Below are positions 5,487 through 19,642 of a DNA stretch of 64,000 nucleotides, piece by piece. This DNA comes from Variovorax paradoxus (GTDB taxonomy: Bacteria > Pseudomonadota > Gammaproteobacteria > Burkholderiales > Burkholderiaceae_C), in contig NZ_JAUSXG010000001.1 in assembly GCF_030815855.1 (NCBI RefSeq), positions 1,426,001-1,490,000 of the forward strand, given 5' to 3'. The notes under the pieces were generated by a model, which was not told the DNA's origin, searched no databases, and worked only from the letters and a program-made list of their open reading frames with translations. The stretch's first letter is position 1, and every line of letters begins with the position of its first letter. The position numbers were made by a program, and so were the translations under genes.

Positions 5487-6447
5487 CGCTCTTGAAGCCC
5501 GAAGCCTTGACGATGGGGCGCCAGTACGCGCGGTCTTCGTTCATGGCACGGGTCACTTCGGCGCCGGGCAGCCCCGTCGCCTCGAGCCCCATGCGCTCGA
5601 GCTGGCCGCGCACCTGCGGGCTGCGCATCGCGGCCAGGAAGGCCGCCTCGAGCTTTGCGACCACCTCCTTCGGCGTGCCCGCCGGCACGAAGGCGGCATA
5701 GGACGCATTGGCGCGGTCGAAGGCGTCGTAGCCGGACTCCTTGAGGGTCGGAACATCGGGCAGCCAGCTCAGCCGCTTCGTCCCCGCGACGCCCAGGATG
5801 CGCAGCTTGCCCGAGCGGTGCAGCTCCAGCTGGCTGGCCAGCGCGTCGGCGCCGAGTGGCACGTGGTCGCCGATGATGTCCGTCGCCAGCGGCGCGCCGC
5901 CTCGGTAGGTGACGGCCGCGAGCGGCACGCCGATGGACTTCGACAGCTGCCACAGGCTGAAGTGCAGGCCGCCGCCGAGGTTGGTGATGCCCACGCTGGC
6001 TTGGGCGGGGTTCTTCTTGACCCACGCGACGTATTCGGGAAGCGTCTTGTACGGCTGGTTCGCGCCAGTGGAAACGACACTGGGCACGTTGGCCAGATGC
6101 GCGAGGGGAATGAAGTCCTTGTCGACGTCGTAGTTCAGCCGCGCGTAGGTCATCGGAAACAGCACGAAGGGCGGTGTGGCGCCGATGAGGATCGTGTGGC
6201 CATCGGGCCGCGCGGTCTTCACCGCCTCGATGGAAATGCGCGTGGACGCACCGGGGCGGCTCTCCACCAGAACGGGCGCCTTGAGCGAGCCGCGTAGTTC
6301 CTCCGCGATGGAGCGCGACAGGTTGTCGAGCGCGCCACCCGGTGGAACACCGATGATGAGGCGCACGGGCGCGTCGTCGGCGTGCGCGCCGGCACCGGCC
6401 AGGGCGATCGACGCGCCGAGCACGAGTGTCTTCAGGAACATGGTCAT
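5479..6447 (-). CDS. Bug-family (TctC-like) periplasmic solute-binding protein
   Basis: A 322-residue protein starting MTMFLKTLVLG with a signal peptide ending at about AHA (residue 23). Bug/TctC family landmarks are present: VRLIIGVPPGGALDNLSR, then RPDGHTILIGATPP, PSVVSTG and WLPDVPTLKESGYDAF. These bind small carboxylates or amides in the periplasm. No TctA/TctB membrane genes are nearby, so it is an orphan, as is common for this expanded family in Burkholderiales. The reading frame extends further upstream, but ATG 6447 is chosen because it begins the signal peptide. It lies between the amidase gene (gap 44 bp) and the MFS gene (8 bp overlap). Confidence 0.9.
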   Translation of the reverse strand: MTMFLKTLVLGASIALAGAGAHADDAPVRLIIGVPPGGALDNLSRSIAEELRGSLKAPVLVESRPGASTRISIEAVKTARPDGHTILIGATPPFVLFPMTYARLNYDVDKDFIPLAHLANVPSVVSTGANQPYKTLPEYVAWVKKNPAQASVGITNLGGGLHFSLWQLSKSIGVPLAAVTYRGGAPLATDIIGDHVPLGADALASQLELHRSGKLRILGVAGTKRLSWLPDVPTLKESGYDAFDRANASYAAFVPAGTPKEVVAKLEAAFLAAMRSPQVRGQLERMGLEATGLPGAEVTRAMNEDRAYWRPIVKASGFKSDE

Positions 6448-6491
6448 GGTGGCTACCTGCTGGTTGAAAAATTGGAAGAAAAAAGAAAGCT

Positions 6492-7943
6492 TCAGAAGGC
6501 CAGCACAGGCAGCGGATTCGCCGGCCGGTGAGCGGCTTCGAGCGACGCGGCGGCCTGCAGCAGTTGCGCGTCTTCGCGAAAGCGGCCGACCAGCTGCATG
6601 CCGATGGGCAGACCATCGCGGTCTGCGCCGCAGGGCAGGCTGATCGCGGGGTGTCCGGTCAGGTTGAACGGCATCGTCCAGGGGAACCAGTTCGCGCGCA
6701 CCTCGGCATAGGCCGTGCCGTCGATCTCGATGCTGCCGAACAGGTCCTGGTCGATGGGGAGGGCCGTACGCGACAGCGTGGGCGTGAAGATGAAATCGTG
6801 CGTCTCCAGCCGCGCCTGCACGTCGCGAAACAACGCAGTCCGCGCGAACATGGCTTGCTGGAATGCGACGCCGTCCACATGCTCGGCCAGCGCCAACTGC
6901 TGCAGCAGCGACGGACTCATCCGGTCGCCGTGCGCCTCGGCCATGGGGGCGAAGCGGCCGCGCCAGCTCGTGTGGTTGATCACGCGCCACACAGGCTCGA
7001 CGTCGAAGCCTTCGCCGGACATCGGCACCAGCTCGGCGCCCATCGATTGCAGGGTTGCGAGAGCGGCCTCGAAGGCGGATGCGACGTCCGCGGCAATCGG
7101 CCGACCCGCGGGCGCCGCACAGAAAAGAATGCGCTTGCCGCAAAGATCGCCGCCCGCCTGCAGATCGTCGAAGTAGCGCTGGGCCGGCACGCCCAGCGAC
7201 CACGGGTCCGACCCGTGCGCGCCTGTCATGGCTTGCAGCATCAGTGCCGTGTCGGCCACGTTGCGCGTGGTGGGCGTCACGTAGGTGTAGTTGCCGAACG
7301 CGTCCTGCACCTGGCTGTGGGGCACCACGCCCAGGCTTTGCTTCAAGCCGACCACGCCGTTGCACGCGGCCGGAATGCGCGTCGAGCCGCCGCCGTCGGT
7401 GGCAATCGCGAGCGGTGCGATGCCCGCCGCCATCGACGCCGCCGCGCCGCCGCTGGAGCCGCCGCTGGTGCGCGACGCATTCCACGCGTTGCGGGTGCTG
7501 CCGAACAGCGGCGCATCGGTCAGGCACTTGGCGCCGAATTCGGACGAGGTCGTCTTGCCGATGAGGATGGCGCCGGCGTCGCGCATTCGCGCCACGGCCA
7601 CCGCGTCTTTCGCGGGCACATGATCGCGGTGCAGCAGCGAGCCGTAGGTGGTCCGCACGTTCGCCGTGTCGACGATGTCCTTCACCGTGAAGGGCAGGCC
7701 ATGCAGCAGGCCCGAAGCCTCGCCGCGCATGAGCGCCTGTTCGGCTTCCCGGGCCTGCTGCAGCGCCTGCTCATGGCACAGCGTGATGAAGCAGTTCAGG
7801 TGCGGCTGCAGCGCATCGGCGCGGCGCAGCACCGCTTCGACGATCTCCACCGGCGAGAGCTCGCGCTGCGCGACCAGCCTGCGCATGGTTGTTGCAGGCA
7901 TCTCGCAGATCTCGGACTTCGGAAGGACGGGAAATTCTTTCAT
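6492..7943 (-). CDS. Amidase of the amidase-signature family
   Basis: A 483-residue amidase-signature enzyme, which hydrolyses amides to acid and ammonia through a Ser-cisSer-Lys triad. The triad can be placed by pattern: Lys88 in PFTVKDIV, cis-Ser163 in TSGGSSGGAAAS and nucleophile Ser187 in TDGGGSTRIPA. No signal peptide is visible, so it is cytoplasmic. It is the first gene of a three-gene minus-strand operon with a Bug-type binding protein and an MFS permease, and a LysR gene is divergent 69 bp away. The set looks like uptake and hydrolysis of an amide compound. Its identity is not evident. Confidence 0.92.
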   Translation of the reverse strand: MKEFPVLPKSEICEMPATTMRRLVAQRELSPVEIVEAVLRRADALQPHLNCFITLCHEQALQQAREAEQALMRGEASGLLHGLPFTVKDIVDTANVRTTYGSLLHRDHVPAKDAVAVARMRDAGAILIGKTTSSEFGAKCLTDAPLFGSTRNAWNASRTSGGSSGGAAASMAAGIAPLAIATDGGGSTRIPAACNGVVGLKQSLGVVPHSQVQDAFGNYTYVTPTTRNVADTALMLQAMTGAHGSDPWSLGVPAQRYFDDLQAGGDLCGKRILFCAAPAGRPIAADVASAFEAALATLQSMGAELVPMSGEGFDVEPVWRVINHTSWRGRFAPMAEAHGDRMSPSLLQQLALAEHVDGVAFQQAMFARTALFRDVQARLETHDFIFTPTLSRTALPIDQDLFGSIEIDGTAYAEVRANWFPWTMPFNLTGHPAISLPCGADRDGLPIGMQLVGRFREDAQLLQAAASLEAAHRPANPLPVLAF

Positions 7944-8012
7944 GCGCAAATGATTGATGCGCCGCCACATGGCGTCCAATACTGTTTTCTTGAAAAGGCA
8001 TATGCACAGCGT
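7944..8012. promoter_or_regulatory. Divergent amidase/LysR control region
   Basis: The 69-bp space between the divergent amidase and LysR starts holds two candidate LysR-type sites. One is an inverted repeat GCGCA-N9-TGCGC at 7944-7962. The other is the 8-bp palindrome GCATATGC at 7998-8005. AAGG at 7995-7998 may be part of the LysR ribosome-binding site. Assignment to the LysR protein is inferred from position. Confidence 0.45.
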
Positions 8013-8912
8013 ATGGCTACACCAGACCTTCGAACCCTTCGCTATTTCGTGGCCGTTGCCGAGGAGCGCAGCGTCGGCAAGGCCGCGCGCCGGCTCAACA
8101 TGGCGCAGCCGCCGCTGTCGGTGCACATCAAGAACCTCGAGGCGGCCCTGGGCACGCCGCTCTTTCGAAGGGCGCCGCACGGCATGGAAATTACCGATGC
8201 GGGCAATGCGCTGTTCCGGCGCGCGAAAGAGGCATTGCTGCTCGCCAACGAAGGCTTCGACGCGGCCCGCGCCGTCGGCTCGGGCCGCCGGGGCCGGCTC
8301 ACCATCGGCACGATGGTCGTGCTGTCCTACCTGGTGCTGCCTCGGCTGGAAAACGAATTGCGGCGCAGGTTGCCGGAGGTGGAAATCCAGTATGCGGAGC
8401 TGAACGCCGTCAACAACATTGCGGCCCTCACCAACGCCGACGTGTCGGTGGCGATCTGCATTCCTCCCATTGCGCAGGCGGGCATTTCGGCCGAGCGCAT
8501 CGGCAGCCAGCCCTTGATGCTCGCGGTGCGCACCGACTCACCGCTGGCGCGCCTGGCCAGCATTCCGCTGGCGCGGCTCTCGGGCCTGCCGCTCATCGGG
8601 TTGCCCGTGCCCGAGGGCGACGTCGACAAATCGGTCATCGCCTCGCTGCTGCGGCGGCACGACGTCAGCATGCCGATCGCGCAGCGGGTCGAGACGATGA
8701 TGTCGGCACTGGCGCTGGTGCTGGCGGGGAAGGGCGTGGCGATATTGCCCGCCTGCGCGCAGATCGGTCGGCCGCCGGGCGTGGTGTTCAGGCCGTTGCG
8801 CAATGTCGATGCGCGGATGGAGATTGCGGCTTGCTGGCGCAGCGATTGGGACAGTCCGTTGATCGAGCCGTTTCTGGCTTGTGCGCGGGCGTCGCTGGAA
8901 GAGCCGATGTAG
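8013..8912 (+). CDS. LysR family transcriptional regulator of the amidase operon
   Basis: A 299-residue LysR protein. The winged-helix domain occupies residues 1-60 (LRTLRYFVAVAEERSVGKAARRL, then QPPLSVHIKNLEAALG). It is followed by the linker helix and a two-lobed effector domain of ordinary length. The ATG at 8013 is chosen over upstream in-frame codons because it starts exactly at the conserved LysR N-terminus. It is divergent from the amidase-tctC-MFS operon, the usual layout for a LysR activator of the neighbouring operon. The inducer is unknown. Confidence 0.92.
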   Translation: MATPDLRTLRYFVAVAEERSVGKAARRLNMAQPPLSVHIKNLEAALGTPLFRRAPHGMEITDAGNALFRRAKEALLLANEGFDAARAVGSGRRGRLTIGTMVVLSYLVLPRLENELRRRLPEVEIQYAELNAVNNIAALTNADVSVAICIPPIAQAGISAERIGSQPLMLAVRTDSPLARLASIPLARLSGLPLIGLPVPEGDVDKSVIASLLRRHDVSMPIAQRVETMMSALALVLAGKGVAILPACAQIGRPPGVVFRPLRNVDARMEIAACWRSDWDSPLIEPFLACARASLEEPM

Positions 8913-8977: not shown

Positions 8978-11122
8978 TCAGTACAACTCGATGGTCTGGC
9001 GCAGCAAGCCTGATTGCTCGGCACTTGGCCCGACGAGGATCTCGACTTCGCCCGCCTGGAACAAGGGCTGCAGGTCCGGCCCCAGGTAGCGTAACTCGGC
9101 CGCCGGCAGCTCCAGATTCACCGAGCCGGCCTCACCAGGCATCAATCGCAGCTTCGCGCAGCCCTTGAGTTCCAGCAAGGGCCGGGTGACACGGCTCAGC
9201 TTGCCGCGAACGAACAGGAACACGGTCTCCTCAGCCTCGCGCACGCCGACGTTGCGCAGTTTGACGCTGACCTTCAGCGTGTCCTGCTCGCACACGCGCT
9301 GCGGCTGGACCTGAAGCTCGTCGTAGATGAACCGGCCGTAAGTCAAGCCGTGGCCGAAGGCATACAGCGGCGTATTTTCGACGTCCTGGTACTTGCTCGT
9401 GAAGTAGTCGGCCGGATTGATCGGCCGGCCGGTGGGACGCTCGCCGAAGTGGATCGGCACCTGCCCGACGGCGCGCGGCCAGCTCATCGGCGTGCGGCCG
9501 CTTGGCGTTGCCCGGCCCGTGACCACGTCGGCAATCGCATGGCCGGCTTCGATGCCGAGGAACCATGCAGCCAGCAGCGCATCGGCGTGTTCGGCCAGCC
9601 AGGGAACGACGAGCGGGCGGCCCGAGAACAGGACGACGACGACAGGAATGCCGAGCGCGTGTGCACGTGCCATCACCGCTTCGGCCAGAACCTGTTGGCG
9701 GCCGGGGAGCGCGGGCGTGGCGCGGCTCGCCGCCTCGCCGCTCATCGTGGCACGCTCGCCCAGGCACAGCAGGACGGCGTCGGTGCCGTCGCACAGCAGG
9801 GCGGCAGCTTCGATGCCGCTGTCGTCGTCACTCTCGATGGCGACGCCCGGTGCATGGCGTATGTCGGTCTGCGGCAGCGCGGCGCGCAAGCCGGCAAGCA
9901 CGCTGACGGCCGGCTCGTGTTCGCCGGCACCCCACCACGGGCCTTTCATCTCGGTGCTTGCGTCGGCCAGCGGGCCGATGACACACAGTGCCTTCGGTGC
10001 AGCAGGCAAGGGGAGGGTGTCCCGCTCGTTCTTGAGCATGACGATGGCCTTGCGCGCGGCGTCGCGCGACAGCGCGTGCCGCTCGGCGACAACCGTTGGG
10101 GGTTCCGGCGTCGCGCCGCGGCGGTAGGGGTCGTCGAACAGGCCGAGCTGCTCCTTGAGCCGCAACACGCGGCGCACGCTGGCGTCGATCTCTTCGATCG
10201 TCACCCGTCCCTGCTCGAGGGCGATCGGCAAACCCTTGCGATACGCGTCGGCCATCATGTCGATGTCGACGCCGGCCTTCAGCGCCAGTACCGCGGCATC
10301 GGCGAGATCGGCCGCGACGCCATGCTTGATCAATTCCGCGATCGCGTTGTAGTCGCTGACGATGACGCCGTCCCAGCCCATCTCGCCGCGCAGCCAGTCG
10401 CGCAGCAAGGGGATGTGCGCCGTCATCGGCACGCCGTTGAGATCGGTGAAGGCGGGCATCAGCGTGGCGACGCCGGCGCGGACCGCTGCTGCGAAGCCCG
10501 GCAGATGGACCTCGCGCAAGGTTCGCTCGGAGATGTCCACGGCGGCGTACTCCCGCCCCGCGTTGACTGCGCCGTAGGCGACGAAATGCTTCGCACAGGC
10601 GGCCAGCGATTCGGCCGAAGACAGGTCGGCCCCCTGGAAGCCGCGCACCTTGGCCTCTGCGATGCGTGCGTTCAGCCAGGGGTCTTCGCCGGGTCCCTCG
10701 GCGGTGCGGCCCCAGCGTGGATCGCGCGACACATCGAGCATCGGCGCGAAAGTCATCGCCAAGCCGTCGGCAGCGGCTTCGCGGGCGGCCTCGCGCGCCG
10801 TGCGCTCCCAGAGGTCTTCGTCGAAGGTGCCGGCTTCGGCAAGCGGAATCGGAAAGAGCGTGCGATGGCCATGAATGATGTCCAGGCCGATCAGCAGCGG
10901 AATGCCCAGCCGTGACTTCTCGACGGCCAGCCGCTGCATCTCGTGCGTGGGGCCGGCGCCGACCATGTTCAGCAGATTGCCGACAGTGCCGTCGATGATC
11001 GACTGCGTGGAGTCCCCCGCGAGCACCGGCCCGGTGACCGTGTAGCTGGAGGCAGTCATCGTCAGTTGACCCAGCTTTTCGGCTAGCGTCATCCGGGCCA
11101 TGAGGGTATCGATGCGGCTCAT
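8978..11122 (-). CDS. Glycoside hydrolase family 3 beta-glucosidase
   Basis: A 714-residue GH3 enzyme of the BglX type: N-terminal TIM-barrel domain, alpha/beta sandwich, and a C-terminal fibronectin-III-like domain (LKVSVKLRNVGVREAEETVFLF). The retaining nucleophile is Asp257 in GVIVSDYNAI, and the substrate-binding KHFVAYG and SRDPRWGRTAE stretches are intact. Unlike periplasmic BglX it has no signal peptide, so it should work in the cytoplasm on imported beta-linked oligosaccharides. The reading frame extends upstream, but MSRIDTLMARMTL is where family similarity begins. It is divergent, 131 bp away, from the PF10091/GH15/ABC/CocE operon. Confidence 0.92.
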   Translation of the reverse strand: MSRIDTLMARMTLAEKLGQLTMTASSYTVTGPVLAGDSTQSIIDGTVGNLLNMVGAGPTHEMQRLAVEKSRLGIPLLIGLDIIHGHRTLFPIPLAEAGTFDEDLWERTAREAAREAAADGLAMTFAPMLDVSRDPRWGRTAEGPGEDPWLNARIAEAKVRGFQGADLSSAESLAACAKHFVAYGAVNAGREYAAVDISERTLREVHLPGFAAAVRAGVATLMPAFTDLNGVPMTAHIPLLRDWLRGEMGWDGVIVSDYNAIAELIKHGVAADLADAAVLALKAGVDIDMMADAYRKGLPIALEQGRVTIEEIDASVRRVLRLKEQLGLFDDPYRRGATPEPPTVVAERHALSRDAARKAIVMLKNERDTLPLPAAPKALCVIGPLADASTEMKGPWWGAGEHEPAVSVLAGLRAALPQTDIRHAPGVAIESDDDSGIEAAALLCDGTDAVLLCLGERATMSGEAASRATPALPGRQQVLAEAVMARAHALGIPVVVVLFSGRPLVVPWLAEHADALLAAWFLGIEAGHAIADVVTGRATPSGRTPMSWPRAVGQVPIHFGERPTGRPINPADYFTSKYQDVENTPLYAFGHGLTYGRFIYDELQVQPQRVCEQDTLKVSVKLRNVGVREAEETVFLFVRGKLSRVTRPLLELKGCAKLRLMPGEAGSVNLELPAAELRYLGPDLQPLFQAGEVEILVGPSAEQSGLLRQTIELY

Positions 11123-11253
11123 CAGGGATTGCGAATAGAACCCAAGGGCCTTAATGATGGCATGCTGCGGGCGGAGAGCATCGGCCGCGTTGCGCTGCCG
11201 ACAATTCGGTGAAACCAAACGTGTTACCGAGACGACAACGAAAGGAGCCCTTC

Positions 11254-12549
11254 GTGCTGAAGGATGACAGGAACCCGAGGGCACTTGCAGCCCTGCCCGA
11301 TGAAGCCTTGCTCGACGCCGTGCAGCGGCAGACCTTCCGCTACTTCTGGGACGGTGCGGATGCCGTCAGCGGCCTGGCGCTCGACCGCCGCACGCTCGTG
11401 GCGGCCACGGGCCAAGACCTGGCCGACGAGAGGGTCGCGATCGGCGGCACGGGCTTCGGCATCATGGCCTTGATCGTCGCGGTGGAGCGCGGCTGGGTCA
11501 CGCGCGACGCGGCGCTGGAGCGCCTGGGGCGCATGCGGGACGCCCTCATGCGCGCCAAGCGCTACCACGGCGCCTTCCCGCACTTCATGGACGGGGCGAG
11601 CGGCGCGACGATCCCGATGAGCCCGAAGGACGACGCCGGCGATCTGGTCGAGACCTCGTTCCTCTGCATGGGCCTGCTCTGCGCTCGCCAGTATTTCAGC
11701 GAGGACACGGCTGCGGCGCGCCGGTTGCGCGCCGACATCGACACGCTGTGGCACGAGGTCGAATGGAACTGGTTCACCCAGGGCGGGCGTGACGTGCTGT
11801 ACTGGCACTGGAGCCCGAACCACGGCTGGGCGATGAACCATGAGGTGCACGGCTGGAACGAGTGCCTGATCACCTACTTCCTGGCGGCGGCCGCGCCGCG
11901 CCATGCGATCGATCCGAAGGTCTACCACCGCGGTTTCGCCTCCGGCCCGGACTTTCGCAACGGCCACTCGTACCAAGGCATCGAACTGCCGCTGGGCCCG
12001 CCGAACGCCGGCCCGCTGTTCTTTGCGCACTACTCGTTCTGCGGCCTCGATCCACGCGGCCTGAAGGATCGCTACGCCGACTACTGGGATCTCAACACCC
12101 GCCACGTGCGGATCAACCGCGCCCACTGCGTCGCCAATCCGCGGGGCTACCCGGGCTATGGGGAATCGTGCTGGGGCCTGACCGCGAGCGACGACCCCGA
12201 TGGTTATCTCGCGCACGATCCGAACAACGACAACGGCACCATCTCGCCGACGGCCGCACTGGCCAGCCTGCCGTACGCGCCGGCCGAGGTGATGCGGGTG
12301 CTGCGGCATTTCCTCACCGCGCACGGCGAGCGGCTGTGGAGAGACTACGGCTTTGTCGATGCATTCTGCGAGCAGCGAGGCTGGTTCGCAGACACCTACC
12401 TTGCCATCGACCAGGGCCCGATCGTCGTGATGATGGAGAACCATCGGACGGGTCTTCTGTGGAAACTGTTCATGAGCGTGCCCGAAGTTCAGGCCGGGTT
12501 GCGCGCCCTGGACTTCAGCAGCCCGCATCTGGGGTCGCCTGCACCGTGA
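11254..12549 (+). CDS. PF10091 glucoamylase-like protein, candidate GH144 beta-1,2-glucanase
   Basis: A 431-residue protein of the PF10091 'glycoamylase' group, to which GH144 endo-beta-1,2-glucanases belong; members cut sophoran-type chains into sophorooligosaccharides. Recognisable blocks are LLDAVQRQTFRYFWDGAD at the N-terminus, GGTGFGIMALIVAVERGW, GDLVETSFLCMGLL, HGWNECLITYFLAAA, and YGESCWGLTASDDPDGY. The GTG at 11254 is chosen because AAGGAG lies 6 bases before it; a longer GTG at 11209 lacks such a site. No signal peptide is seen, unusual for a GH144 enzyme and implying a cytoplasmic site. Its last bases overlap the GH15 start (GTGA). Endo versus exo action cannot be read from sequence. 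Confidence 0.85.
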   Translation: MLKDDRNPRALAALPDEALLDAVQRQTFRYFWDGADAVSGLALDRRTLVAATGQDLADERVAIGGTGFGIMALIVAVERGWVTRDAALERLGRMRDALMRAKRYHGAFPHFMDGASGATIPMSPKDDAGDLVETSFLCMGLLCARQYFSEDTAAARRLRADIDTLWHEVEWNWFTQGGRDVLYWHWSPNHGWAMNHEVHGWNECLITYFLAAAAPRHAIDPKVYHRGFASGPDFRNGHSYQGIELPLGPPNAGPLFFAHYSFCGLDPRGLKDRYADYWDLNTRHVRINRAHCVANPRGYPGYGESCWGLTASDDPDGYLAHDPNNDNGTISPTAALASLPYAPAEVMRVLRHFLTAHGERLWRDYGFVDAFCEQRGWFADTYLAIDQGPIVVMMENHRTGLLWKLFMSVPEVQAGLRALDFSSPHLGSPAP

Positions 12550-13955
12550 CCTTCAGCGTGGCGAGCCAGCCGGATCCGGCGTTCGAGTCCTGGCTCGAAA
12601 CGCAGCTGCGCCATTCGGCGACGGCGATGCTGTCCAGCATCTCGCCGGTGTCGGTCGTCAAGCACCGGCCGGGCTTCGGCCAGACCGTGCGGCCGATCGT
12701 CGGCGCCATCGTGGCCTCGCCGGTCCTCGCCGACTACAACCCGGACCCGGACTACTTCTTTCACTGGTTCCGCGATTCCGCCGTCGTCATCGATGCATTG
12801 CGCCTGCTCTACGCCGAAGGGCGCATCGGCGACGAAGCCCTGCAGCACCTGCGGGACTTCATCCGCTTCAGCCTGGACTTGAACCGGCTCGACGGCCGCG
12901 CGGCTGCCGCGGTGGAGGACCGCAGCGCGTGCGTGGCCCCCGAGCTCTTGCAGTACCTGCGCGAGGACCATGACCTTGCGACAGCTTTCGGCGACCTGGT
13001 GGCCGCCGAGACACGGGTGAACCCCGACGGCACGCTCGATGTCTGCCGATGGAATCGCCCGCAGCACGACGGTGCGCCGCTGCGCGCGCTGGCGCTGCTG
13101 CGCTGGTCGGCCGGCGGGCACCTCGACGCGGCGCTGCTGGCGGAAGCCTCCGAGCTGATCCGCTTCGATATCGATTTCACGCTGCGTCGCTGGCGCGAGC
13201 CGTCATACGACATCTGGGAGGAGGAGCTCGGCCACCACTACTACACGCTGCGCGTCTCGGCGGCCGCGCTGGCCGAAGGCGCGGCATGGCTGGATGGCTT
13301 GGGCGACGCGGCGCAGGCGCAGGCGCAGCGCTGCCGTGAGGAGTCGCGCGCGGTGCTGCGCCTGCTCGACGACTACTGGGTCGATGAACGAGACGAGCGG
13401 TCGGTCGATCGCGACGCCACGCGCGGCTATTACCGTTCACGTGCGCTGGCGGACGGCCAGCCCAGTCCGAAGGCGCTGGACATCGCGGTGATCCTGTCGG
13501 CGATCCACAGCCTCGGCGACGAAGCCGCGCATGGACCGGCCGATCTGCGCATGCAGGCTACGCTGGCGCGCCTGGACGCGCTGTTCGACGCGGCCTATCC
13601 CATCAACCACGGCCGCGACGCAGGCCGTGGCGCGGCGATGGGCCGGTATGCCGGCGACGTGTACTACTCAGGCGGCGCGTACTACTTCTCGACGCTCGGC
13701 GCCGCCGAGTTCTGTTTCCGCGCCGCGGCGGCGATGGGCGGCGATGCACGCCATTGGCTGGACTGCGGCGACGCCTATCTCGCCACCGTGCGCGCGTACA
13801 CGCCGGCCGGCGGTGATCTGTCGGAACAGTTCGACCAGCGCAGCGGCGCGCAGACCTCGGCAAAACAACTGGCCTGGAGCCACGCCGCTTTCATTTCGTG
13901 TGTCTCGGCGCGCCACATCGCGGCCGGCGCTTGCCTGGCGCCGCGCGGGCGATGA
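12546..13955 (+). CDS. Glycoside hydrolase family 15 glucoamylase-like enzyme
   Basis: A 469-residue GH15 (alpha/alpha)6-barrel enzyme that removes alpha-linked glucose from non-reducing ends. The acid is Glu225 in YDIWEEELG and the base is the Glu of GDLSEQFD near residue 435; YFFHWFRDSAVV marks the substrate pocket. There is no starch-binding domain and no signal peptide, so a soluble intracellular oligosaccharide is likelier than starch. GTG 12546 overlaps the preceding TGA (GTGA), and its end overlaps the next ATG (ATGA), so translation is probably coupled. GH15 members differ in alpha-1,4 and alpha-1,6 preference, which cannot be decided here. Confidence 0.9.
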   Translation: MTFSVASQPDPAFESWLETQLRHSATAMLSSISPVSVVKHRPGFGQTVRPIVGAIVASPVLADYNPDPDYFFHWFRDSAVVIDALRLLYAEGRIGDEALQHLRDFIRFSLDLNRLDGRAAAAVEDRSACVAPELLQYLREDHDLATAFGDLVAAETRVNPDGTLDVCRWNRPQHDGAPLRALALLRWSAGGHLDAALLAEASELIRFDIDFTLRRWREPSYDIWEEELGHHYYTLRVSAAALAEGAAWLDGLGDAAQAQAQRCREESRAVLRLLDDYWVDERDERSVDRDATRGYYRSRALADGQPSPKALDIAVILSAIHSLGDEAAHGPADLRMQATLARLDALFDAAYPINHGRDAGRGAAMGRYAGDVYYSGGAYYFSTLGAAEFCFRAAAAMGGDARHWLDCGDAYLATVRAYTPAGGDLSEQFDQRSGAQTSAKQLAWSHAAFISCVSARHIAAGACLAPRGR

Positions 13956-15712
13956 GCGCGAGGCCCGGGAACCGCCTCGAGCCGGCTGCAAGGACCGGTT
14001 TCTTCCGCCAGGTCAGCGAGCTGCTCGGCGCCTTGCGCCTGTCCCCGGTCGCGACAACGCTTGTGGCGCTGATGAGCGCAATCGTCGTGGTCGTCGCGCT
14101 CACGGCGTACGGGCAGATCGAACTCAACAGCTGGAACAAGCCGTTCTACGATGCGATCTCGCGTCGCGACCTGGGCGAATTCGTCACGCAGGTCGGCGTT
14201 TTTGCGGTGATTGCGGGCGCGCTGCTGGTCTTGAACGTGGCGCAGAGATGGCTGGCCGAAACCTTGCAGCTGAAGCTGCGCGAGGCCGTGGTCAGTGACC
14301 TCGTGGGGCTGTGGCTGCAGCCGCGCCGGGCGTTCTGGCTCCAGGCCAGCGGCCCGATGGGGGCCCACCCCGACCAGCGCATGCACGACGACACGCTGAA
14401 GCTGTGCGATCTGTCGGTCACCCTCGGCGTAGGCCTGTTGCAGGCAGCGATGCTGTTCGGCAGCTTTGCGAGCGTGCTGTGGGTCCTCTCCAAGGACTTC
14501 AGCCTTTTCTTCGACGGCAAGGACCACGTGCTGCCGGGCTTCATGCTGTGGGCGGCCATCGCCTATGCGGTCGCCGGTTCGCTGGTCACCTACTGGGTCG
14601 GCAACGGCCTGATCTCGCGCAACGCCGAGCGCTACGCGCGCGAAGGCGAATTGCGCTTCTCGCTGACGCGCATCAACGAGCATCTCGACGGCATCTCCCT
14701 GGCTGGCGGCGAGGCCGACGAGAAGCGCCGCGTCGCCATGCATTTCGGCGACGTCCTGCGCGCCACATCGCGCGTGGTGCTCGGGCTGACCAACCTGACC
14801 TGGGTCACCGCGGGCTTCGGCTGGGTCACCATCATCGCGCCGACGCTGGTGGCCGCGCCCCTCTACTTCTCGGGGAAGGTTTCGTTCGGCGGTTTGATGA
14901 TGGCTGCCGCGGCCTTCACGCAGGCGCAGTCGTCGCTGCGCTGGTTCGTCGACAACTTCAGCATCATTGCCGACTGGCGCGCCACGCTGCTGCGCGTCGC
15001 CGACCTGCGCCGGATGCTGGCGTCCGATCTGGAGGCACAAGCAGGCGGCAGCCGCATTGCCTACGAGGAGGGCGAAGCCGGGGCGCTCGCGATCGAAGCG
15101 CTCGAGGTTCGTTCCTGGACCGGCCACGACCGGCTGGACACCCCGGAGCTCGTCGTGCACCGCGGCCAGCGCGTCCTGGTTCTCGGCACACCGGGCACCG
15201 AGAAGACCTTGCTGTTCCGGGCGCTCGCGGGCCTCTGGCCCTGGGGCGCCGGCACGGTGCGCCGGCCCGCCGGCGAGACGATCCACTACATGCCGCGCGG
15301 CACGCCCTACATTCCCCGCGGCACGCTGGCCGAAGTGCTGTCGTATGCGATGGAGCCGTCGACCTACCCGAGGGAAGCCATGGTGGCCGCACTGGCGAGC
15401 GTGGGCCTCCAGCGCCTGGAACCCTTGCTCGACAGGACGGGTCGCTGGGAGAGCGACCTCAGCATGGACGAGCAGTTGCGCCTGGGCTTCGCCCGCGTGG
15501 CGCTGCAGGCACCGTCCTGGCTGGTGATGGACGAGGCCTTCGGCGCGTTCGACGACGACACGCTCGAACTCGTCATCGACGTGCTGGGCAAGCTCACGCA
15601 CACGGGCATTGTCCATATAGGCTCGGCCGGAGAAGCGCACGACCGGCTGTTCACGCAGGTGGTGCGTCTGGTGAAAGCGCCGAGCGCCGCGACCGAGGAG
15701 CAGCGACCATGA
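13952..15712 (+). CDS. SbmA/BacA-type ABC protein with degenerate ATPase domain
   Basis: A 586-residue protein with an SbmA/BacA-like (ABCD-type) membrane domain at about 1-340 (WNKPFYDAISRRDLGEF, six or so helices) and a C-terminal nucleotide-binding domain. Several ATPase landmarks deviate from the family: Walker A is GTPGTEKT (Glu417 in place of Gly), the Q-loop Gln is Arg449, the signature is LSMDEQ (Asp506 in place of Gly), and the H-loop His is Ser558 (HIGSAG). Walker B (LVMDEAFGAFDD) is kept. It may be poorly active or inactive as an ATPase; SbmA itself lacks an ATPase domain and uses the proton gradient. ATGA overlaps join it to GH15 before and the CocE-like gene after, suggesting glucan transport. 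Confidence 0.85.
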   Translation: MSARPGNRLEPAARTGFFRQVSELLGALRLSPVATTLVALMSAIVVVVALTAYGQIELNSWNKPFYDAISRRDLGEFVTQVGVFAVIAGALLVLNVAQRWLAETLQLKLREAVVSDLVGLWLQPRRAFWLQASGPMGAHPDQRMHDDTLKLCDLSVTLGVGLLQAAMLFGSFASVLWVLSKDFSLFFDGKDHVLPGFMLWAAIAYAVAGSLVTYWVGNGLISRNAERYAREGELRFSLTRINEHLDGISLAGGEADEKRRVAMHFGDVLRATSRVVLGLTNLTWVTAGFGWVTIIAPTLVAAPLYFSGKVSFGGLMMAAAAFTQAQSSLRWFVDNFSIIADWRATLLRVADLRRMLASDLEAQAGGSRIAYEEGEAGALAIEALEVRSWTGHDRLDTPELVVHRGQRVLVLGTPGTEKTLLFRALAGLWPWGAGTVRRPAGETIHYMPRGTPYIPRGTLAEVLSYAMEPSTYPREAMVAALASVGLQRLEPLLDRTGRWESDLSMDEQLRLGFARVALQAPSWLVMDEAFGAFDDDTLELVIDVLGKLTHTGIVHIGSAGEAHDRLFTQVVRLVKAPSAATEEQRP

Positions 15713-17994
15713 GACACCGCGAGTCGACCTTCAGCCGTGCGCGCCGCGTTCTCACGCGGCTGGTTCTTGCGCTGCCCGTGTGGTCAACCTGGTCTTGGGC
15801 GGCGGATTTCGGCTTCCGGCCACCGCGCGACCCAGACGATGCCACCGCGGCGGACCTGATGCGAGATCTGGCCGAGCGCATCCTGCCGGTGTACCAGGAG
15901 GCGGACACCGATGTCTTCCTGGCCAACCTGACCGCCCTGCAGATCGTCAGCGGCGCCTACCGTGCAGCCTCCGACAGCAGCGGATCCCTGCGCAGCCGCC
16001 GCCAGGGCAAGCCGTTCGACGACCTGGTCCAACGCGCGATCCTCGACGGCATTTATGCGCGTGCGCGCGCACTCGAAGCGGACGGGCGCCTCGGCTTCGC
16101 CGAAGCCTACGCGCGCGCATTCCAGGAATTGGTGTCGCCGCTGGACAACCTGCAAGCACAGGCCATCATGTCGCGGCTCGAAATCCCAGCGGCGGCGTAC
16201 AGGGAGCCGCTGCGCCAAGCTTTCGATCTGTGGCGCGCGAAGGGCAGCCTCCCGGAGGCCGATGCGCTGGCGCTCGTGCGGACCTGGCATTCGTACCAGT
16301 CGCGCCGCAGCTTCGGTGCGCTGCTGCCCGAACTGTTCGCGGCGGAAAACCGCGCCCGCTACGTGGCAGAGGGCGACGTCACGATTCCCGTGCGCGGGGG
16401 TGTCATCCATGCGAGCCTGGTTCGGCCCGGCCGCACCAGTGACGCTCTGCCGACGCTGCTGCGCTTCACGCTCGACCCCGCCGAGGACGACGCCCAGCGC
16501 AGCGCCGCCAAAGGCTACGTCGGCGTCACGGCGTACGTGCGCGGACGCACGCCCGACGGCAACGGCGCCGTATGGCCGTTCGTCCGCGACGGCGAAGACG
16601 CCGCCGCGGTCATCGACTGGATTGCCCGACAGGCGTGGAGCGACGGCCGCGTCTGCATGATCGGCGACGGCTACTCCGGCTACGCCGCCTGGGCTGCCGC
16701 CCGCTTGAGACCCGCGGCGCTCAAGGCCATCGCCACCATCGCGCCGATGGCGCCGGGCATCGACTTCCCGATGGCGGGACAGATCTTCCGCAACGCCATG
16801 GTCCGCTGGGCGCAGGAGCATGCGAATGCCGAGCCGCTTCGGGCTGACGCAGACGCCAGCCCGGATGCGACATGGCAGGCACTCGACGCGCGCTGGTATC
16901 GGGGCAATCGCCCTTACTGGGACATCGACCGCGTCCTGATCGGCAAGCGCAGCCGGCTGATTCGCACCTGGCTGACGCACCCCAGCCACGATCGCTACTG
17001 GCAGAAGTTCCTGCCGTCGGCGCAGCAGTTTGCGCGCATCGACATCCCGGTGCTCAGCTTCGCCGGCTACTACGGCGCCGACGCCGGCGCGCTCTACTTC
17101 CACGACGAGCATCGCCGCAATCGGCCACAAGCCGACACGACGCTGCTGCTCGGTCCCTACGATGCAGCCTCGATCCGGCTCGGCACCGCGCCGACGCTGC
17201 GCGGCTACACGCTGGACCCCGTCGCACGCGTCGACCTGCCCGAGCTCCGCTTGCAATGGCTCGACCACGTCCTGAAGGGCGCGAACAAGCCTTCCCTGCT
17301 GATGGACCGCGTCAACTACCAGGTGATGGGTGCGGACCAGTGGCGCCATGTGCCGACGCGGGACGCGCCGCAGCGCACCGGACTGCGCTTCTACCTCGAC
17401 ACCCGCGAGCGCGACGACCCGCACCGCCTGTTGGCGTCGCCGTCCGAAGGCGGTGGCAGTGCGCGGCTCTCCGTCGATCTCGCCGATCGGCGTGACGTGC
17501 GCATCCCGTGGCCGGACGCGCTGCGCGTGAAGCAACTGCCGACGCGCAACGGCTTGAGCTTTGTCAGTGAGCCGCTCTCAGAGGACATCGAGATCTTCGG
17601 CAGCTTGCGCGGCGTGTTCGACATCACGCCCTCGCGGCAGGACGTTGACTTCAGCGTCTCGCTCTATGAGCAGACGGACAGCGGCGAGTACCAACTGCTG
17701 TTCGATCCCTACGACTTCCGCGCCAGCTACGCAGGCCACCGGGTGCGCCGCAGGCTTCTTCGGGCCGGCGAGCGCCAGCTGCTTGCGTTCACCGCCGAAC
17801 GCGTGACGGCTCGCAGGCTTGCGGCGGGCAGCCGCATCGTGCTGCTGATCGCCCTCAACAAACGACCCGACCGGCAGATCAACTACGGCAGCGGCAAGGA
17901 CGTGAATTCGGAGACCGTTGCAGACGCCAAGTGGCCCGTGCGCGTGCGCTGGCATGCCCGCAGCTACATCGAAATCCAGACCGGCAAGCCTTGA
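15709..17994 (+). CDS. CocE/NonD-like exported protein lacking its catalytic triad
   Basis: A 761-residue protein with a signal peptide (cleavage near WSWA-A, residue 31), a unique helical region to about 215, an X-Pro dipeptidyl-peptidase (S15/CocE) alpha/beta-hydrolase domain, and a C-terminal jelly-roll-like domain. The fold markers GYVGVTAYVRGR and IDWIARQAWSDGRV are clear. The nucleophile elbow normally GxSYxG is GDGYSG (Gly321 at the Ser position), the acid region reads GYYGADAG (Gly455 where Asp is expected), and the His motif GPWTHG is GPYDAA (Ala485). It therefore looks like a non-catalytic periplasmic relative, perhaps a binding protein. It overlaps the ABC gene by ATGA and ends 5 bp before the convergent GH13 gene. 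Confidence 0.8.
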   Translation: MRHRESTFSRARRVLTRLVLALPVWSTWSWAADFGFRPPRDPDDATAADLMRDLAERILPVYQEADTDVFLANLTALQIVSGAYRAASDSSGSLRSRRQGKPFDDLVQRAILDGIYARARALEADGRLGFAEAYARAFQELVSPLDNLQAQAIMSRLEIPAAAYREPLRQAFDLWRAKGSLPEADALALVRTWHSYQSRRSFGALLPELFAAENRARYVAEGDVTIPVRGGVIHASLVRPGRTSDALPTLLRFTLDPAEDDAQRSAAKGYVGVTAYVRGRTPDGNGAVWPFVRDGEDAAAVIDWIARQAWSDGRVCMIGDGYSGYAAWAAARLRPAALKAIATIAPMAPGIDFPMAGQIFRNAMVRWAQEHANAEPLRADADASPDATWQALDARWYRGNRPYWDIDRVLIGKRSRLIRTWLTHPSHDRYWQKFLPSAQQFARIDIPVLSFAGYYGADAGALYFHDEHRRNRPQADTTLLLGPYDAASIRLGTAPTLRGYTLDPVARVDLPELRLQWLDHVLKGANKPSLLMDRVNYQVMGADQWRHVPTRDAPQRTGLRFYLDTRERDDPHRLLASPSEGGGSARLSVDLADRRDVRIPWPDALRVKQLPTRNGLSFVSEPLSEDIEIFGSLRGVFDITPSRQDVDFSVSLYEQTDSGEYQLLFDPYDFRASYAGHRVRRRLLRAGERQLLAFTAERVTARRLAAGSRIVLLIALNKRPDRQINYGSGKDVNSETVADAKWPVRVRWHARSYIEIQTGKP

Positions 17995-17998
17995 TGGC

Positions 17999-19642
17999 TC
18001 ATCGTGTCGTCGGACTCTTGTCGTTCACGGTGCCGACAATGACGCCTTCGTAGGGCGCCAGCACCAGAGGCTCCTCGATGAACTCGGCCCGCGCCGGGTC
18101 GGTCGATGCCAGCACGATCGCCTCGCGCGGCATCAGTGCCGGCGAGATCGGCGCCGGGGTGGCGCCAAAGTTGAGCAGCACCACGAGCCGCCGTCCCTCC
18201 CAGTTGCGCGCATAGGCGAGCACCTCGCCCTCGGCCTCGGCCTCGAGCGCTTCATGGCTGCCCCGGTTCAGCGCAGGCTCGGCGCGGCGCAACGCGATGA
18301 GGCGCCGGTAGAGCGCCAGCATCGACCCTGCGTCGCGTGATTGCGCTTCCACATTGTTCGTGGGCCAGTCGGCTGCCAGGCGCAGCCACGGCGTACCGGT
18401 CGTGAAGCCCGCGTTCTCCCTGGCGCTCCACTGCATGGGTGTTCGCTCCGGGTCGCGGCCCAGGCCCATACCGGGCTTGTTCTTCTCGAACGGGTCCTGC
18501 ACTTCATCGGCGGGAATGGGGACGTCCGTCATGCCGATCTCGTCGCCGTAGTAGAGCGTTGGCGTGCCGCGCAGCGTGAGCAGCAGCATGGCCGCGAGCC
18601 GCGCCATCCGGGGCCCGACGCGGCTCACAATGCGCGACCTGTCGTGATTGCCCAGCACCCAGTTCGGCTGGGCGCCGGCGGGCAGGGCGGCTTCGTAGTC
18701 GCGCACGAAGCGGTCGATGTGCGCTGCCTGCCACTCGGTCGCGATCAGCTGAAAGTTGAAGGGCAGTTGCACGCCTTCGAGCACACCTTCGGCATTGAGT
18801 CCGTAGTAGGCGACCAGGCGCGTGAGCGGCAGGTAGAGCTCGCCGATCAGCACGCGCGACGAGCGCGCGTCGCTGAACGCGTCGACCACCCGGCGCATTT
18901 CGGCCACGATCGGCTGCACCTCCGGCAGGTCTGTGTTGTAGAGCATCAACCAGCGAAAGAACGGGTCCTGGCCTTCGGCGAAGTCCGGGTTCGGCGGGTT
19001 GTCGCGGAACTGCGCGTCCTTGATGATCTGGGAGAGCACATCGACGCGGAATCCGTCGACGCCGCGCCGCAGCCAGAAGCGCAGCACCTCGTACATCGCG
19101 GCCCGCACGTCGGGGTTGCGCCAGTTGAGGTCGGGCTGTTCCTTCAGGAACGAATGGCCGTAGTACTGGCCGGTGGCCGGATCGAAGGTCCAGGCCGGGC
19201 CGCCGAAATTGCTGAGCCAGTTGTTGGGCGGCCCGCCGTCCGGCGCCGGGTCGCGCCAGATGTACCAGTCACGCCGCGGATCGCTGCGGGCGCTGCGGCT
19301 CTGCACGAACCACGGATGGCGGTCCGACGTGTGGTTGGGCACGAAGTCCAGAATGAGCTTGAGCCCTCTTGCGTGGGCCTCCTGCACCAGCGCATCGAAG
19401 CCGGCCAGCGTACCGAACTGCGGATCGATGTCGCAAAAATCGGAGATGTCATACCCGAAGTCGGCCATCGGCGAGGGATAGATCGGCGAGATCCAGACGG
19501 CATCGACACCGAGCGAGACCAGATGATCCAGCCGGGCACGGATTCCGTCGAGGTCTCCAATGCCATCGCCATCGCTGTCCTGGAACGAACGCGGATAGAC
19601 CTGATAGACGATTCCGTGCTTCCACCAGTCGTCGGCTGACAT
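17999..19642 (-). CDS. GH13 alpha-glucosidase, probably alpha-1,6-specific
   Basis: A 547-residue GH13 enzyme of the oligo-1,6-glucosidase/alpha-glucosidase subfamilies. The catalytic residues are nucleophile Asp201 (GFRVDV), acid Glu268 (LIGELY) and Asp334 (NHDRSR), and the QPDLNW region is present. The residue after the nucleophile is Val202. In well studied members Val here goes with alpha-1,6 specificity and Thr with alpha-1,4. The domain B and C-terminal beta-domain are of ordinary length. No signal peptide is seen. ATG 19642 has GAAGGG upstream at about -14 to -9, which decides it over longer in-frame starts. It faces the CocE-like gene with only 4 bp between, so it has its own promoter but belongs to the locus by function. 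Confidence 0.9.
   Translation of the reverse strand: MSADDWWKHGIVYQVYPRSFQDSDGDGIGDLDGIRARLDHLVSLGVDAVWISPIYPSPMADFGYDISDFCDIDPQFGTLAGFDALVQEAHARGLKLILDFVPNHTSDRHPWFVQSRSARSDPRRDWYIWRDPAPDGGPPNNWLSNFGGPAWTFDPATGQYYGHSFLKEQPDLNWRNPDVRAAMYEVLRFWLRRGVDGFRVDVLSQIIKDAQFRDNPPNPDFAEGQDPFFRWLMLYNTDLPEVQPIVAEMRRVVDAFSDARSSRVLIGELYLPLTRLVAYYGLNAEGVLEGVQLPFNFQLIATEWQAAHIDRFVRDYEAALPAGAQPNWVLGNHDRSRIVSRVGPRMARLAAMLLLTLRGTPTLYYGDEIGMTDVPIPADEVQDPFEKNKPGMGLGRDPERTPMQWSARENAGFTTGTPWLRLAADWPTNNVEAQSRDAGSMLALYRRLIALRRAEPALNRGSHEALEAEAEGEVLAYARNWEGRRLVVLLNFGATPAPISPALMPREAIVLASTDPARAEFIEEPLVLAPYEGVIVGTVNDKSPTTR

What the first reader, a model, noticed from the sequence alone, without database searches (positions are those of the whole stretch)
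8978..19642. Possible catabolic locus for a beta-1,2-glucan with alpha-1,6 linkages
Two enzymes that suit beta-1,2-glucan (PF10091/GH144-like and GH3) sit with two alpha-glucosidases (GH15 and GH13). All four lack signal peptides and so should act in the cytoplasm, with an SbmA/BacA-like membrane protein between them. Four plus-strand genes are joined by 4-base overlaps. Osmoregulated periplasmic glucans of some Ralstonia and Xanthomonas are beta-1,2 rings closed by one alpha-1,6 bond, and this mix of enzymes would be needed to take one fully apart. The target is inferred.
Basis: partly seen in the sequence, partly recalled or inferred. Interest (0 to 1): 0.72.

Follow-up and report, generated by a model that had tools for sequence, protein, structure and literature searches.

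The report
Cytoplasmic β-1,2-glucan ring dismantling cluster
A conserved set of bacterial genes looks built to bring a ring-shaped envelope sugar into the cell and break it down to glucose, probably the bacterium's own periplasmic glucan, which would be a breakdown route for a sugar whose making, but not unmaking, has been studied.

Summary
GH3, GH144, GH15, a YddA/SbmA-type ABC protein, a CocE/NonD-like protein and GH13 lie at the stated place in a Variovorax-like genome; four plus-strand genes are joined by three 4-base overlaps.

Clustering is conserved. In 42 proteobacterial loci with a close GH144, the ABC protein is present in 42, GH3 in 39, an α-glucosidase in 40 (GH15 in 38; GH13 instead in two Hyphomicrobiales). 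None of 38 Bacteroidota loci has GH15, GH13 or the ABC protein. Proteobacterial GH144 and GH3 mostly lack hydrophobic N-termini; Bacteroidota ones mostly have them.

OpgG/OpgD genes occur in 27 of 27 proteobacterial carriers tested (109 of 398 in the phylum). Eight of 20 other carriers inspected have an XccOpgD-type GH186.

Best reading: intact cyclic β-1,2-glucan, probably α-1,6-closed and the cell's own, is imported and dismantled in the cytoplasm.

Unexpected: the ABC signature glycine is lost in 41 of 41 copies, and the CocE-like protein lacks its nucleophile in 31 of 31.

Substrate, transport and recycling are inferred. Against the exact substrate: Ala in the Hyphomicrobiales GH13, two diagnostic residues missing in Variovorax GH186, and a cyclic-glucan synthase beside one copy of the cluster.

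The parts
8978..11122 (-). GH3 β-glucosidase, no signal peptide seen (ATG at 11122)
   Evidence: Pfam; PDB matches 5xxl 546.6 bits and Lin1840 (4zoa) 476.4 bits; PMC12369401 passages name Lin1840 and BT_3567 as β-1,2-glucan-associated GH3 enzymes; SDY or TDY nucleophile motif in 39 of 39 rows
11209..12549 (+). GH144 β-1,2-glucanase, cytoplasmic by sequence; probable true start GTG 11254
   Evidence: CpSGL 5gzh E=1.8e-143; CpSGL D135, D139, E142, E211, F268, Y330 all identical (alignment, residues from PMC12102758); acid and base in 43 of 43 rows
12546..13955 (+). GH15 exo-α-glucosidase
   Evidence: Pfam; both catalytic Glu of A. niger glucoamylase aligned and kept in 38 of 38 rows with letters
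13952..15712 (+). YddA/SbmA-type ABC protein with degenerate nucleotide-binding domain; proposed glucan importer
15709..17994 (+). CocE/NonD-like protein, probably periplasmic, without the catalytic Ser, Asp or His of cocaine esterase
17999..19642 (-). GH13 α-glucosidase with Val after the nucleophile (α-1,6 type); convergent, optional member
   Evidence: rule from PMC8539097 passages

Best explanation
The cluster is a cytoplasmic route for dismantling cyclic β-1,2-glucan, probably the α-1,6-cyclised kind (CβGα), and most likely the cell's own osmoregulated periplasmic glucan. Steps: (1) the intact ring in the periplasm is carried across the inner membrane by the YddA/SbmA-type protein, which probably does not hydrolyse ATP (inferred); (2) GH144 opens the ring and cuts β-1,2 links inside the chain (activity by family, residues kept); (3) GH3 removes glucose from non-reducing ends until it meets the α-1,6-linked glucose; (4) GH15, or GH13 where GH15 is missing, removes that glucose and GH3 goes on. 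The periplasmic CocE-like protein is probably a non-catalytic helper, for example in binding or presenting glucan (weakest step). Shown here: genes, conservation, residues, compartments by sequence, co-occurrence with OPG synthesis genes. Inferred: substrate, transport direction, energy source and recycling.
For: Synteny: of 42 proteobacterial loci, ABC in 42, GH3 in 39, GH15 in 38, GH15 or GH13 in 40, CocE in 32; 0 of 38 Bacteroidota loci have GH15, GH13 or ABC. In a phylum sample 36 of 398 genomes had a GH144-like match; of 20 such loci fetched, 3 close ones have ABC and GH15 or GH13, and the other 17 have no GH15 or GH13 match. GH13 stands in for GH15 in L073 and L077. Catalytic residues kept in GH144, GH15 and GH13, and the nucleophile in GH3. 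Hydrophobic N-terminus: GH144 0/42 proteobacterial vs 35/38 Bacteroidota; GH3 2/38 vs 25/31. OPG genes: OpgG/D in 27 of 27 proteobacterial carriers vs 0 of 3 Bacteroidota and 109 of 398 in the phylum; own genome has OpgD/G and OpgH. XccOpgD-type residues in 8 of 20 non-Variovorax carriers inspected. A TonB-type receptor in 1 of 57 large flanking ORFs of non-Variovorax loci, so the glucan need not come from outside. CβG16α was not hydrolysed by a GH3 exo-enzyme alone (PMC11228985 section 5). In one Variovorax (L029) a 2764-residue cyclic-glucan-synthase-like gene lies about 1.3 kb from the cluster's GH13, which ties the cluster to cyclic glucan.
Against: No search made here found CβGα reported for Variovorax; its GH186 has Tyr at W76 but lacks the D343 and R477 equivalents. 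Four inspected carriers (L040, L051, L052, L077) show neither GH186 type. The GH13 of L073 and L077, the only α-glucosidase found there, has Ala after the nucleophile, an α-1,4-type residue. L059 has no GH15 or GH13 and L058's contig ends just after GH144. In the genus the close GH144 is in 13 of 37 genomes while OpgG/D is in 35 of 37, so recycling is not a core need; one carrier, G010 (89% complete), shows no OpgG/D. The own genome has an orthologue (93% over 1068 residues) of the cyclic-glucan synthase that sits beside the L029 copy, so a plain β-1,2 ring is possible. XccOpgD-type GH186 also occurs in non-carriers (L223-L226). The GH3 kin Lin1840 and BT_3567 cut laminaribiose about as fast as sophorose (passage). 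Carriers share ancestry, so 27 of 27 is not 27 independent events. Transport is not shown.
Confidence: 0.46

Rival explanations
1. Scavenging of foreign β-1,2-glucans (from rhizobia, xanthomonads and others): same enzymes, but the glucan or its pieces come from outside the cell.
For: Patchy in the genus (13 of 37) and present on plasmid records (L035; two records), as catabolic islands often are; close GH144 relatives in Bacteroidota mostly have hydrophobic N-termini and flanking ORFs with SusD (11 of 58) and Plug (11 of 58) matches.
Against: A ring of 2 kDa or more should need an outer-membrane receptor (recalled), found in 1 of 57 large flanking ORFs of non-Variovorax loci; OpgG/D in 27 of 27 carriers tested; no secreted glucanase in the cluster.
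Confidence: 0.28
2. Plain cyclic or linear β-1,2-glucan is the substrate, for example the product of the strain's own cyclic-glucan synthase; the α-glucosidases serve α-glucan metabolism and are neighbours only.
For: A cyclic-glucan-synthase-like gene (PF10091 plus GH94 domains) lies beside the cluster in L029, and the own genome has its orthologue elsewhere; Hyphomicrobiales GH13 has Ala after the nucleophile; L059 lacks GH15 and GH13.
Against: That synthase is beside 1 of 42 proteobacterial loci only; 40 of 42 loci keep an α-glucosidase, with GH13 standing in for GH15; GH15 overlaps GH144 by 4 bases, so they are probably co-transcribed; the genome has another GH15 and further GH13 genes; Variovorax GH13 has the α-1,6-type Val.
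Confidence: 0.24
3. The substrate is another mixed α/β glucan or a sophorose-bearing glycoside, not an OPG ring.
For: GH13 and GH15 specificity is unknown; pieces of other polymers could carry β-1,2 units (inference).
Against: OpgG/D in 27 of 27 carriers tested; no other family recurs next to the cluster across the proteobacterial loci (ORFs of 100 residues or more).
Confidence: 0.08

Closest known systems
GH144 β-1,2-glucanases CpSGL and XcSGL (XCC2207)
   Same: Sequence family, and the six tested CpSGL residues identical
   Different: XcSGL has a signal peptide (Table 3 passage) and Bacteroidota kin mostly have hydrophobic N-termini and no GH15, GH13 or this ABC protein nearby; the one here is cytoplasmic by sequence. 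The neighbours of XCC2207 itself were not looked at
Listeria innocua Lin1839-1841 sophorooligosaccharide cluster
   Same: GH3 β-glucosidase for β-1,2 oligomers plus an ABC importer (passages)
   Different: There the importer has a separate sugar-binding subunit for short oligomers (the Listeria phosphorylase is from a passage); here a glucanase, an α-glucosidase and a YddA-type protein
YddA/BclA ABC proteins and SbmA/BacA (SLiPT)
   Same: Matches PF06472 and PF05992; glutamates at SbmA E276 and E287 in 41 of 41, acidic at E378 in 41 and at E193 in 40 of 40 with letters
   Different: Keeps an NBD unlike SbmA, but signature Gly is lost in 41 of 41 unlike YddA and the own-genome paralogue
CocE/NonD hydrolases (S15)
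   Same: TIGR00976 147.7 bits over cut-off 66.3
   Different: No Ser at the nucleophile place in 31 of 31 rows with letters; Asp and His also replaced in the alignment
XccOpgD, α-1,6-cyclised β-1,2-glucohexadecaose synthase (GH186)
   Same: Makes the proposed substrate class; carriers have GH186 genes
   Different: Synthesis, not breakdown; Variovorax GH186 has only the aromatic residue of the three diagnostic ones

Membership tests
GH144 | General acid E211, base candidate E142, D135, D139, clan residues F268 and Y330 (CpSGL numbering) | tested here: met
   All six aligned and identical (against PMC12102758); acid and base in 43 of 43 rows
GH144 | Hydrolysis of β-1,2-glucan; endo rather than exo | not testable with these tools
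   CpSGL (endo) 481.8 bits, BDI_3064 423.2 bits (that BDI_3064 is the exo type is recalled); not decided by sequence
GH15 | Two catalytic Glu (A. niger E179 and E400, numbers recalled) | tested here: met
   WEE and EQFD motifs aligned, kept in 38 of 38 rows with letters
GH13 α-1,6-glucosidase | Asp/Glu/Asp catalytic set | tested here: met
   19 of 19 rows
GH13 α-1,6-glucosidase | Val after the nucleophile (Val216 rule, PMC8539097 passages) | tested here: inconclusive
   Val in 17 of 17 Variovorax rows including the window; Ala in both Hyphomicrobiales rows; rule made for other GH13 enzymes
GH3 | Catalytic Asp nucleophile | tested here: met
   SDY or TDY in 39 of 39 rows; acid/base not tested
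ATP-driven ABC transporter (YddA/BclA) | Walker A Lys, Q-loop Gln, signature Gly, Walker B Glu, H-loop His | tested here: not met
   K 39/41, Q 3/41, signature Gly 0/41, Glu 24/41, His 1/41; no row has all (L022 and L056, frame-shifted or cut, were dropped); control paralogue and YddA complete
SLiPT (SbmA/BacA) | No nucleotide-binding domain | tested here: not met
   PF00005 match
SLiPT (SbmA/BacA) | Glutamate ladder E193, E203, E269, E276, E287, E378 | tested here: inconclusive
   E276 and E287 41/41 Glu; E378 Asp 38, Glu 3; E193 Glu 27, Asp 13, gap 1; E203 and E269 not acidic
CocE/NonD active hydrolase | Catalytic Ser, Asp, His | tested here: not met
CβGα-degrading pathway | Acts on α-1,6-cyclised β-1,2-glucan | not testable with these tools
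   needs enzymes and substrate

The most novel reading that the evidence does not exclude
Proteobacteria recycle their own cyclic periplasmic glucans: a ring of over 2 kDa is pulled back whole into the cytoplasm by a YddA-descended transporter that has kept its nucleotide-binding domain but lost ATP hydrolysis, a second escape from ATP beside SbmA, with a catalytically dead CocE-like protein acting as its periplasmic glucan receptor.
Probability: 0.22. Interest if true: 0.82.

Novelty: new variant of a known kind. Interest (0 to 1): 0.62.

Why it matters
Synthesis and ring closure of α-1,6-cyclised β-1,2-glucans were worked out only recently; the papers found here do not describe a breakdown route for them (searches; passages or sections). 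A conserved gene set in an environmental genus makes the question of OPG turnover directly testable, offers enzymes for analysing such rings, and gives a natural test of how a type IV ABC protein can work, or serve, without ATPase motifs.

Tried and rejected
Chance neighbourhood: rejected by synteny over 42 proteobacterial loci. Starch cluster: not favoured, since GH15 overlaps GH144 and the genome has other α-glucan genes. Extra conserved members: none recur besides the six across the proteobacterial loci. Own-genome second PF10091 hit: a cyclic-glucan-synthase-like protein with a GH94 domain, not a second GH144. Promoter scan: one match where 0.5 is expected, none between GH3 and GH144. Literature on residue rules: one search found nothing and nothing usable; one search did. 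Literature on OPG recycling: the ten papers listed are general ones. Structure prediction of the CocE-like and ABC proteins never ran because the machine was full, so no fold search was made. The H-loop count used a wrong anchor and was redone. R477 of XccOpgD could not be placed exactly in the Xanthomonas-like rows; I used the conserved Arg of the ARPL motif, two positions away by my count.
Full report
WHAT IS THERE. The window lies at G000:C1:1426001-1490000 of a 5.95 Mb single-contig genome. The 18 best named relatives listed for the GH144 are Variovorax. Six genes lie at 8978-19642: GH3 (-), then GH144, GH15, an ABC protein and a CocE/NonD-like protein (+), then GH13 (-). The three junctions between the four plus-strand genes read GTGA, ATGA and ATGA. 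GH3 begins at ATG 11122 and GH13 at ATG 19642. For GH144 the GTG at 11254 is the more likely start, because the closest homologues listed are about 431 residues long.

ENZYMES. GH144: CpSGL (5gzh) E=1.8e-143; XcSGL (8xul) E=4.8e-50. CpSGL residues D135, D139, E142, E211, F268 and Y330, which PMC12102758 (section 12 part 1, section 9 and passages) names as catalytic, tested or clan-defining, are identical in the window protein (alignment). GH3: among its PDB matches are the periplasmic β-glucosidase 5xxl (546.6 bits) and Lin1840 (476.4 bits). PMC12369401 (passages) names Lin1840 and BT_3567 as β-1,2-glucan-associated GH3 enzymes, which however cut laminaribiose at comparable speed; that 5xxl is BT_3567 is recalled. 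GH15: both catalytic Glu of fungal glucoamylase aligned and kept in 38 of 38 rows with letters. GH13: Asp, Glu and Asp kept in 19 of 19 rows; the residue after the nucleophile is Val in 17 Variovorax rows including the window, and Ala in the two Hyphomicrobiales rows. PMC8539097 (passages) reports that Val there goes with α-1,6 and Thr or Ala with α-1,4 activity, in other GH13 enzymes.

CONSERVATION OF THE CLUSTER. Of these, 42 are proteobacterial (19 Variovorax and 23 others including Nevskia, Solimonas, Hydrocarboniphaga, Labrys, Methylocapsa and unclassified Hyphomicrobiales) and 38 Bacteroidota. By tblastn at 80 bits or more (recounted), the 42 have ABC in 42, GH3 in 39 (two of the three misses are contigs under 3.5 kb), GH15 in 38, GH13 in 18 (16 Variovorax and L073, L077), GH15 or GH13 in 40, and CocE-like in 32. 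Misses for both α-glucosidases are L058 (contig ends just after GH144) and L059 (Labrys). The 38 Bacteroidota loci have none of GH15, GH13 or ABC and have GH3 in 31. The order changes (ABC upstream of GH144 in L043, L044, L048, L053, L055, L056, L058, L059, L071, L082), so the grouping is kept without one fixed order. No further family recurs across the non-Variovorax loci.

A LESS BIASED SAMPLE. Of 398 genomes drawn across the phylum, 36 have a GH144-like match at 1e-20, the own genome included. I fetched loci of 20 of the 35 others. Three with 56-63% identity have GH3, ABC and an α-glucosidase (L146 with a GH13 match of 210 residues, L147 and L149 with GH15). The other 17 have no GH15 or GH13 match, and one (L157) has a 29% ABC match. 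One of the 17 (L148, 51% identical) has a TonB-type receptor and two LacI regulators nearby. A quick tree used 68 rows (6 of 19 Variovorax, half of the Bacteroidota, rows of 300 residues or more); the Bacteroidota are one side of a branch (96), the GH15-bearing rows group together (91) with L058 and L059 inside, the GH13-bearing rows fall outside in an unresolved fork, and the fewest changes of α-glucosidase state is 4.

COMPARTMENT. A hydrophobic stretch near the N-terminus (mean hydropathy over 2.0 in 11 residues) is seen for GH144 in 0 of 42 proteobacterial and 35 of 38 Bacteroidota rows, for GH3 in 2 of 38 and 25 of 31, for GH15 in 1 of 37, GH13 in 0 of 18, and for the CocE-like protein in 20 of 32. 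This is a simple scan, not a signal-peptide program. It says that the hydrolases probably work in the cytoplasm and the CocE-like protein probably does not.

THE TRANSPORTER. It matches PF06472 and PF05992 and carries an ABC domain. Against E. coli YddA and SbmA (regions of K-12; alignment), 41 rows (window and 40 loci; L022 and L056 dropped as frame-shifted or cut) show Walker A Lys in 39, Q-loop Gln in 3, signature Gly in 0 (Asp 34, Glu 6, Ala 1), Walker B Glu in 24 and H-loop His in 1 (which corrects). No row has the full set; the three phylum-sample copies also lack the signature Gly. The only other full-length relative found in the own genome (L167, 33%) and YddA itself have all motifs, so the loss is special to this family. 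If it works as a homodimer, both sites would be broken and ATP hydrolysis is unlikely; a partner elsewhere is not excluded. PMC13316013 (passages) states that SbmA runs on protons through a glutamate ladder and probably came from a YddA-like ancestor that lost its NBD. Here E276 and E287 are Glu in 41 of 41, E378 is acidic in 41, E193 in 40 of 40 with letters, and E203 and E269 are not acidic. I therefore propose proton-driven or facilitated import, as an inference.

THE COCE-LIKE PROTEIN. It passes the CocE_NonD model (147.7 bits, cut-off 66.3), but in the alignment to cocaine esterase the catalytic Ser falls on Gly, and Asp and His are also replaced (catalytic numbering recalled). None of 31 rows with letters has Ser in that column; some have Ser one place earlier, and the Ser two places later in GDGYSG is not kept in others. 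It is a probable dead hydrolase. Removal of succinyl or acetyl groups from the glucan was considered and is made unlikely by this.

LINK TO OPG. In the genus the close GH144 is in 13 of 37 genomes and OpgG/D in 35 of 37, the two misses being incomplete genomes; one of them, G010, is a carrier. Of 30 genomes reached through loci, all 27 proteobacterial ones have OpgG/D and the 3 Bacteroidota do not; in the phylum sample 109 of 398 do. Shared ancestry makes this weaker than it looks. The own genome also has OpgH (50% identical). PMC11228985 (sections 5 and 10) gives W76 (or Tyr), D343 and R477 as marks of the enzyme that closes the α-1,6 ring. I compared 66 GH186 proteins from 59 loci (L044, L047, L048 and some further copies were not fetched). 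An aromatic residue, Asp and Arg at these places are found in carriers L041, L042, L043, L045, L046, L049, L050 and L054 (8 of 20 non-Variovorax carriers inspected; Trp in six, Phe in L042 and L046). L053, L055, L056, L058 and L071 have Tyr, Asp and His. Variovorax (window and four carriers), L059, L073, L082, second copies in L041 and L045, and two sampled genomes of another class have Tyr but not the other two, which resembles the paper's description of its clade 4, thought to be ring-closing with another product; clade membership was not tested. L040, L051, L052 and L077 show neither. The Variovorax type is also in a non-carrier (L221) and the XccOpgD type in four non-carriers of the cluster (L223-L226), so making the ring does not imply the cluster. 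One TonB-type receptor appears among 57 large flanking ORFs of the 23 non-Variovorax loci (46, where 25 of 65 matching families were listed, and 11), and none among 9 of 18 such ORFs from eight Variovorax loci; in 58 Bacteroidota ORFs 11 match SusD and 11 the Plug domain. This favours a periplasmic source.

A SYNTHASE NEXT DOOR. In L029 (Variovorax sp. OV700) a GH94 match ends about 1.3 kb beyond GH13. Read further, it is a 2764-residue ORF with PF10091 and GH94 domains, the make-up of cyclic β-1,2-glucan synthases (domain make-up partly recalled; PMC11842490 passages). The own genome's L002 is 93% identical to it over 1068 residues. Among the 42 proteobacterial loci only L029 shows it. It ties the cluster to cyclic glucan but also raises the plain β-1,2 ring as a substrate.

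HOW IT PROBABLY WORKS. See best explanation. My estimates: β-1,2-glucan as substrate class 0.85; import by the ABC-like protein 0.6; α-1,6 closure 0.5; own-glucan recycling 0.4; the role of the CocE-like protein is a guess.

NOVELTY. β-1,2-glucan gene clusters are known in Listeria, Streptomyces and others (passages). I found no description of this set with a cytoplasmic GH144, an α-glucosidase and a YddA-type protein, nor of CβGα breakdown, in the searches; the library holds open-licence papers only, and most listed papers were seen as listings.

Noticed in passing
L029:19776-21332 and L236:2157-10451 (Variovorax sp. OV700): A 2764-residue cyclic-glucan-synthase-like gene about 1.3 kb from the cluster's GH13; the own genome has its orthologue elsewhere (L002, C1:1991920-1995519), so such strains may make two kinds of cyclic glucan.
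   Followed up: partly
L154 and L156: Synthase-like pieces (GH94 and N-terminal part) also lie beside distant-type GH144 genes in two other sampled genomes.
   Followed up: no
L157:6734-13305: A 29% YddA-like ABC protein with an even more collapsed nucleotide-binding domain (no Walker A Lys) sits between two distant-type GH144 genes; possibly a second, independent pairing.
   Followed up: partly
L149:12142-15606: The GH3 gene is split, with an ORF that looks like a transposase between its two halves (judged by eye).
   Followed up: no
L035 (pVarWS11_2); NZ_CP138514.1 and NZ_CP138516.1: Cluster on secondary replicons of Variovorax; the last two cover 100% of the query at 91.6 and 91.4% identity.
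   Followed up: partly
Bacteroidota loci: GH97 (an α-glucosidase or α-galactosidase family, recalled) in 4 and GH43 in 10 of 58 flanking ORFs near GH144 genes.
   Followed up: no
window 5479-8912: Tripartite-tricarboxylate-type receptor, amidase and a LysR-type regulator just upstream; judged from the translations only, seemingly unrelated.
   Followed up: no
L149:4884-6623: A second YddA-like protein with intact signature and Walker motifs, though not the H-loop His, lies beside the cluster's degenerate one.
   Followed up: no
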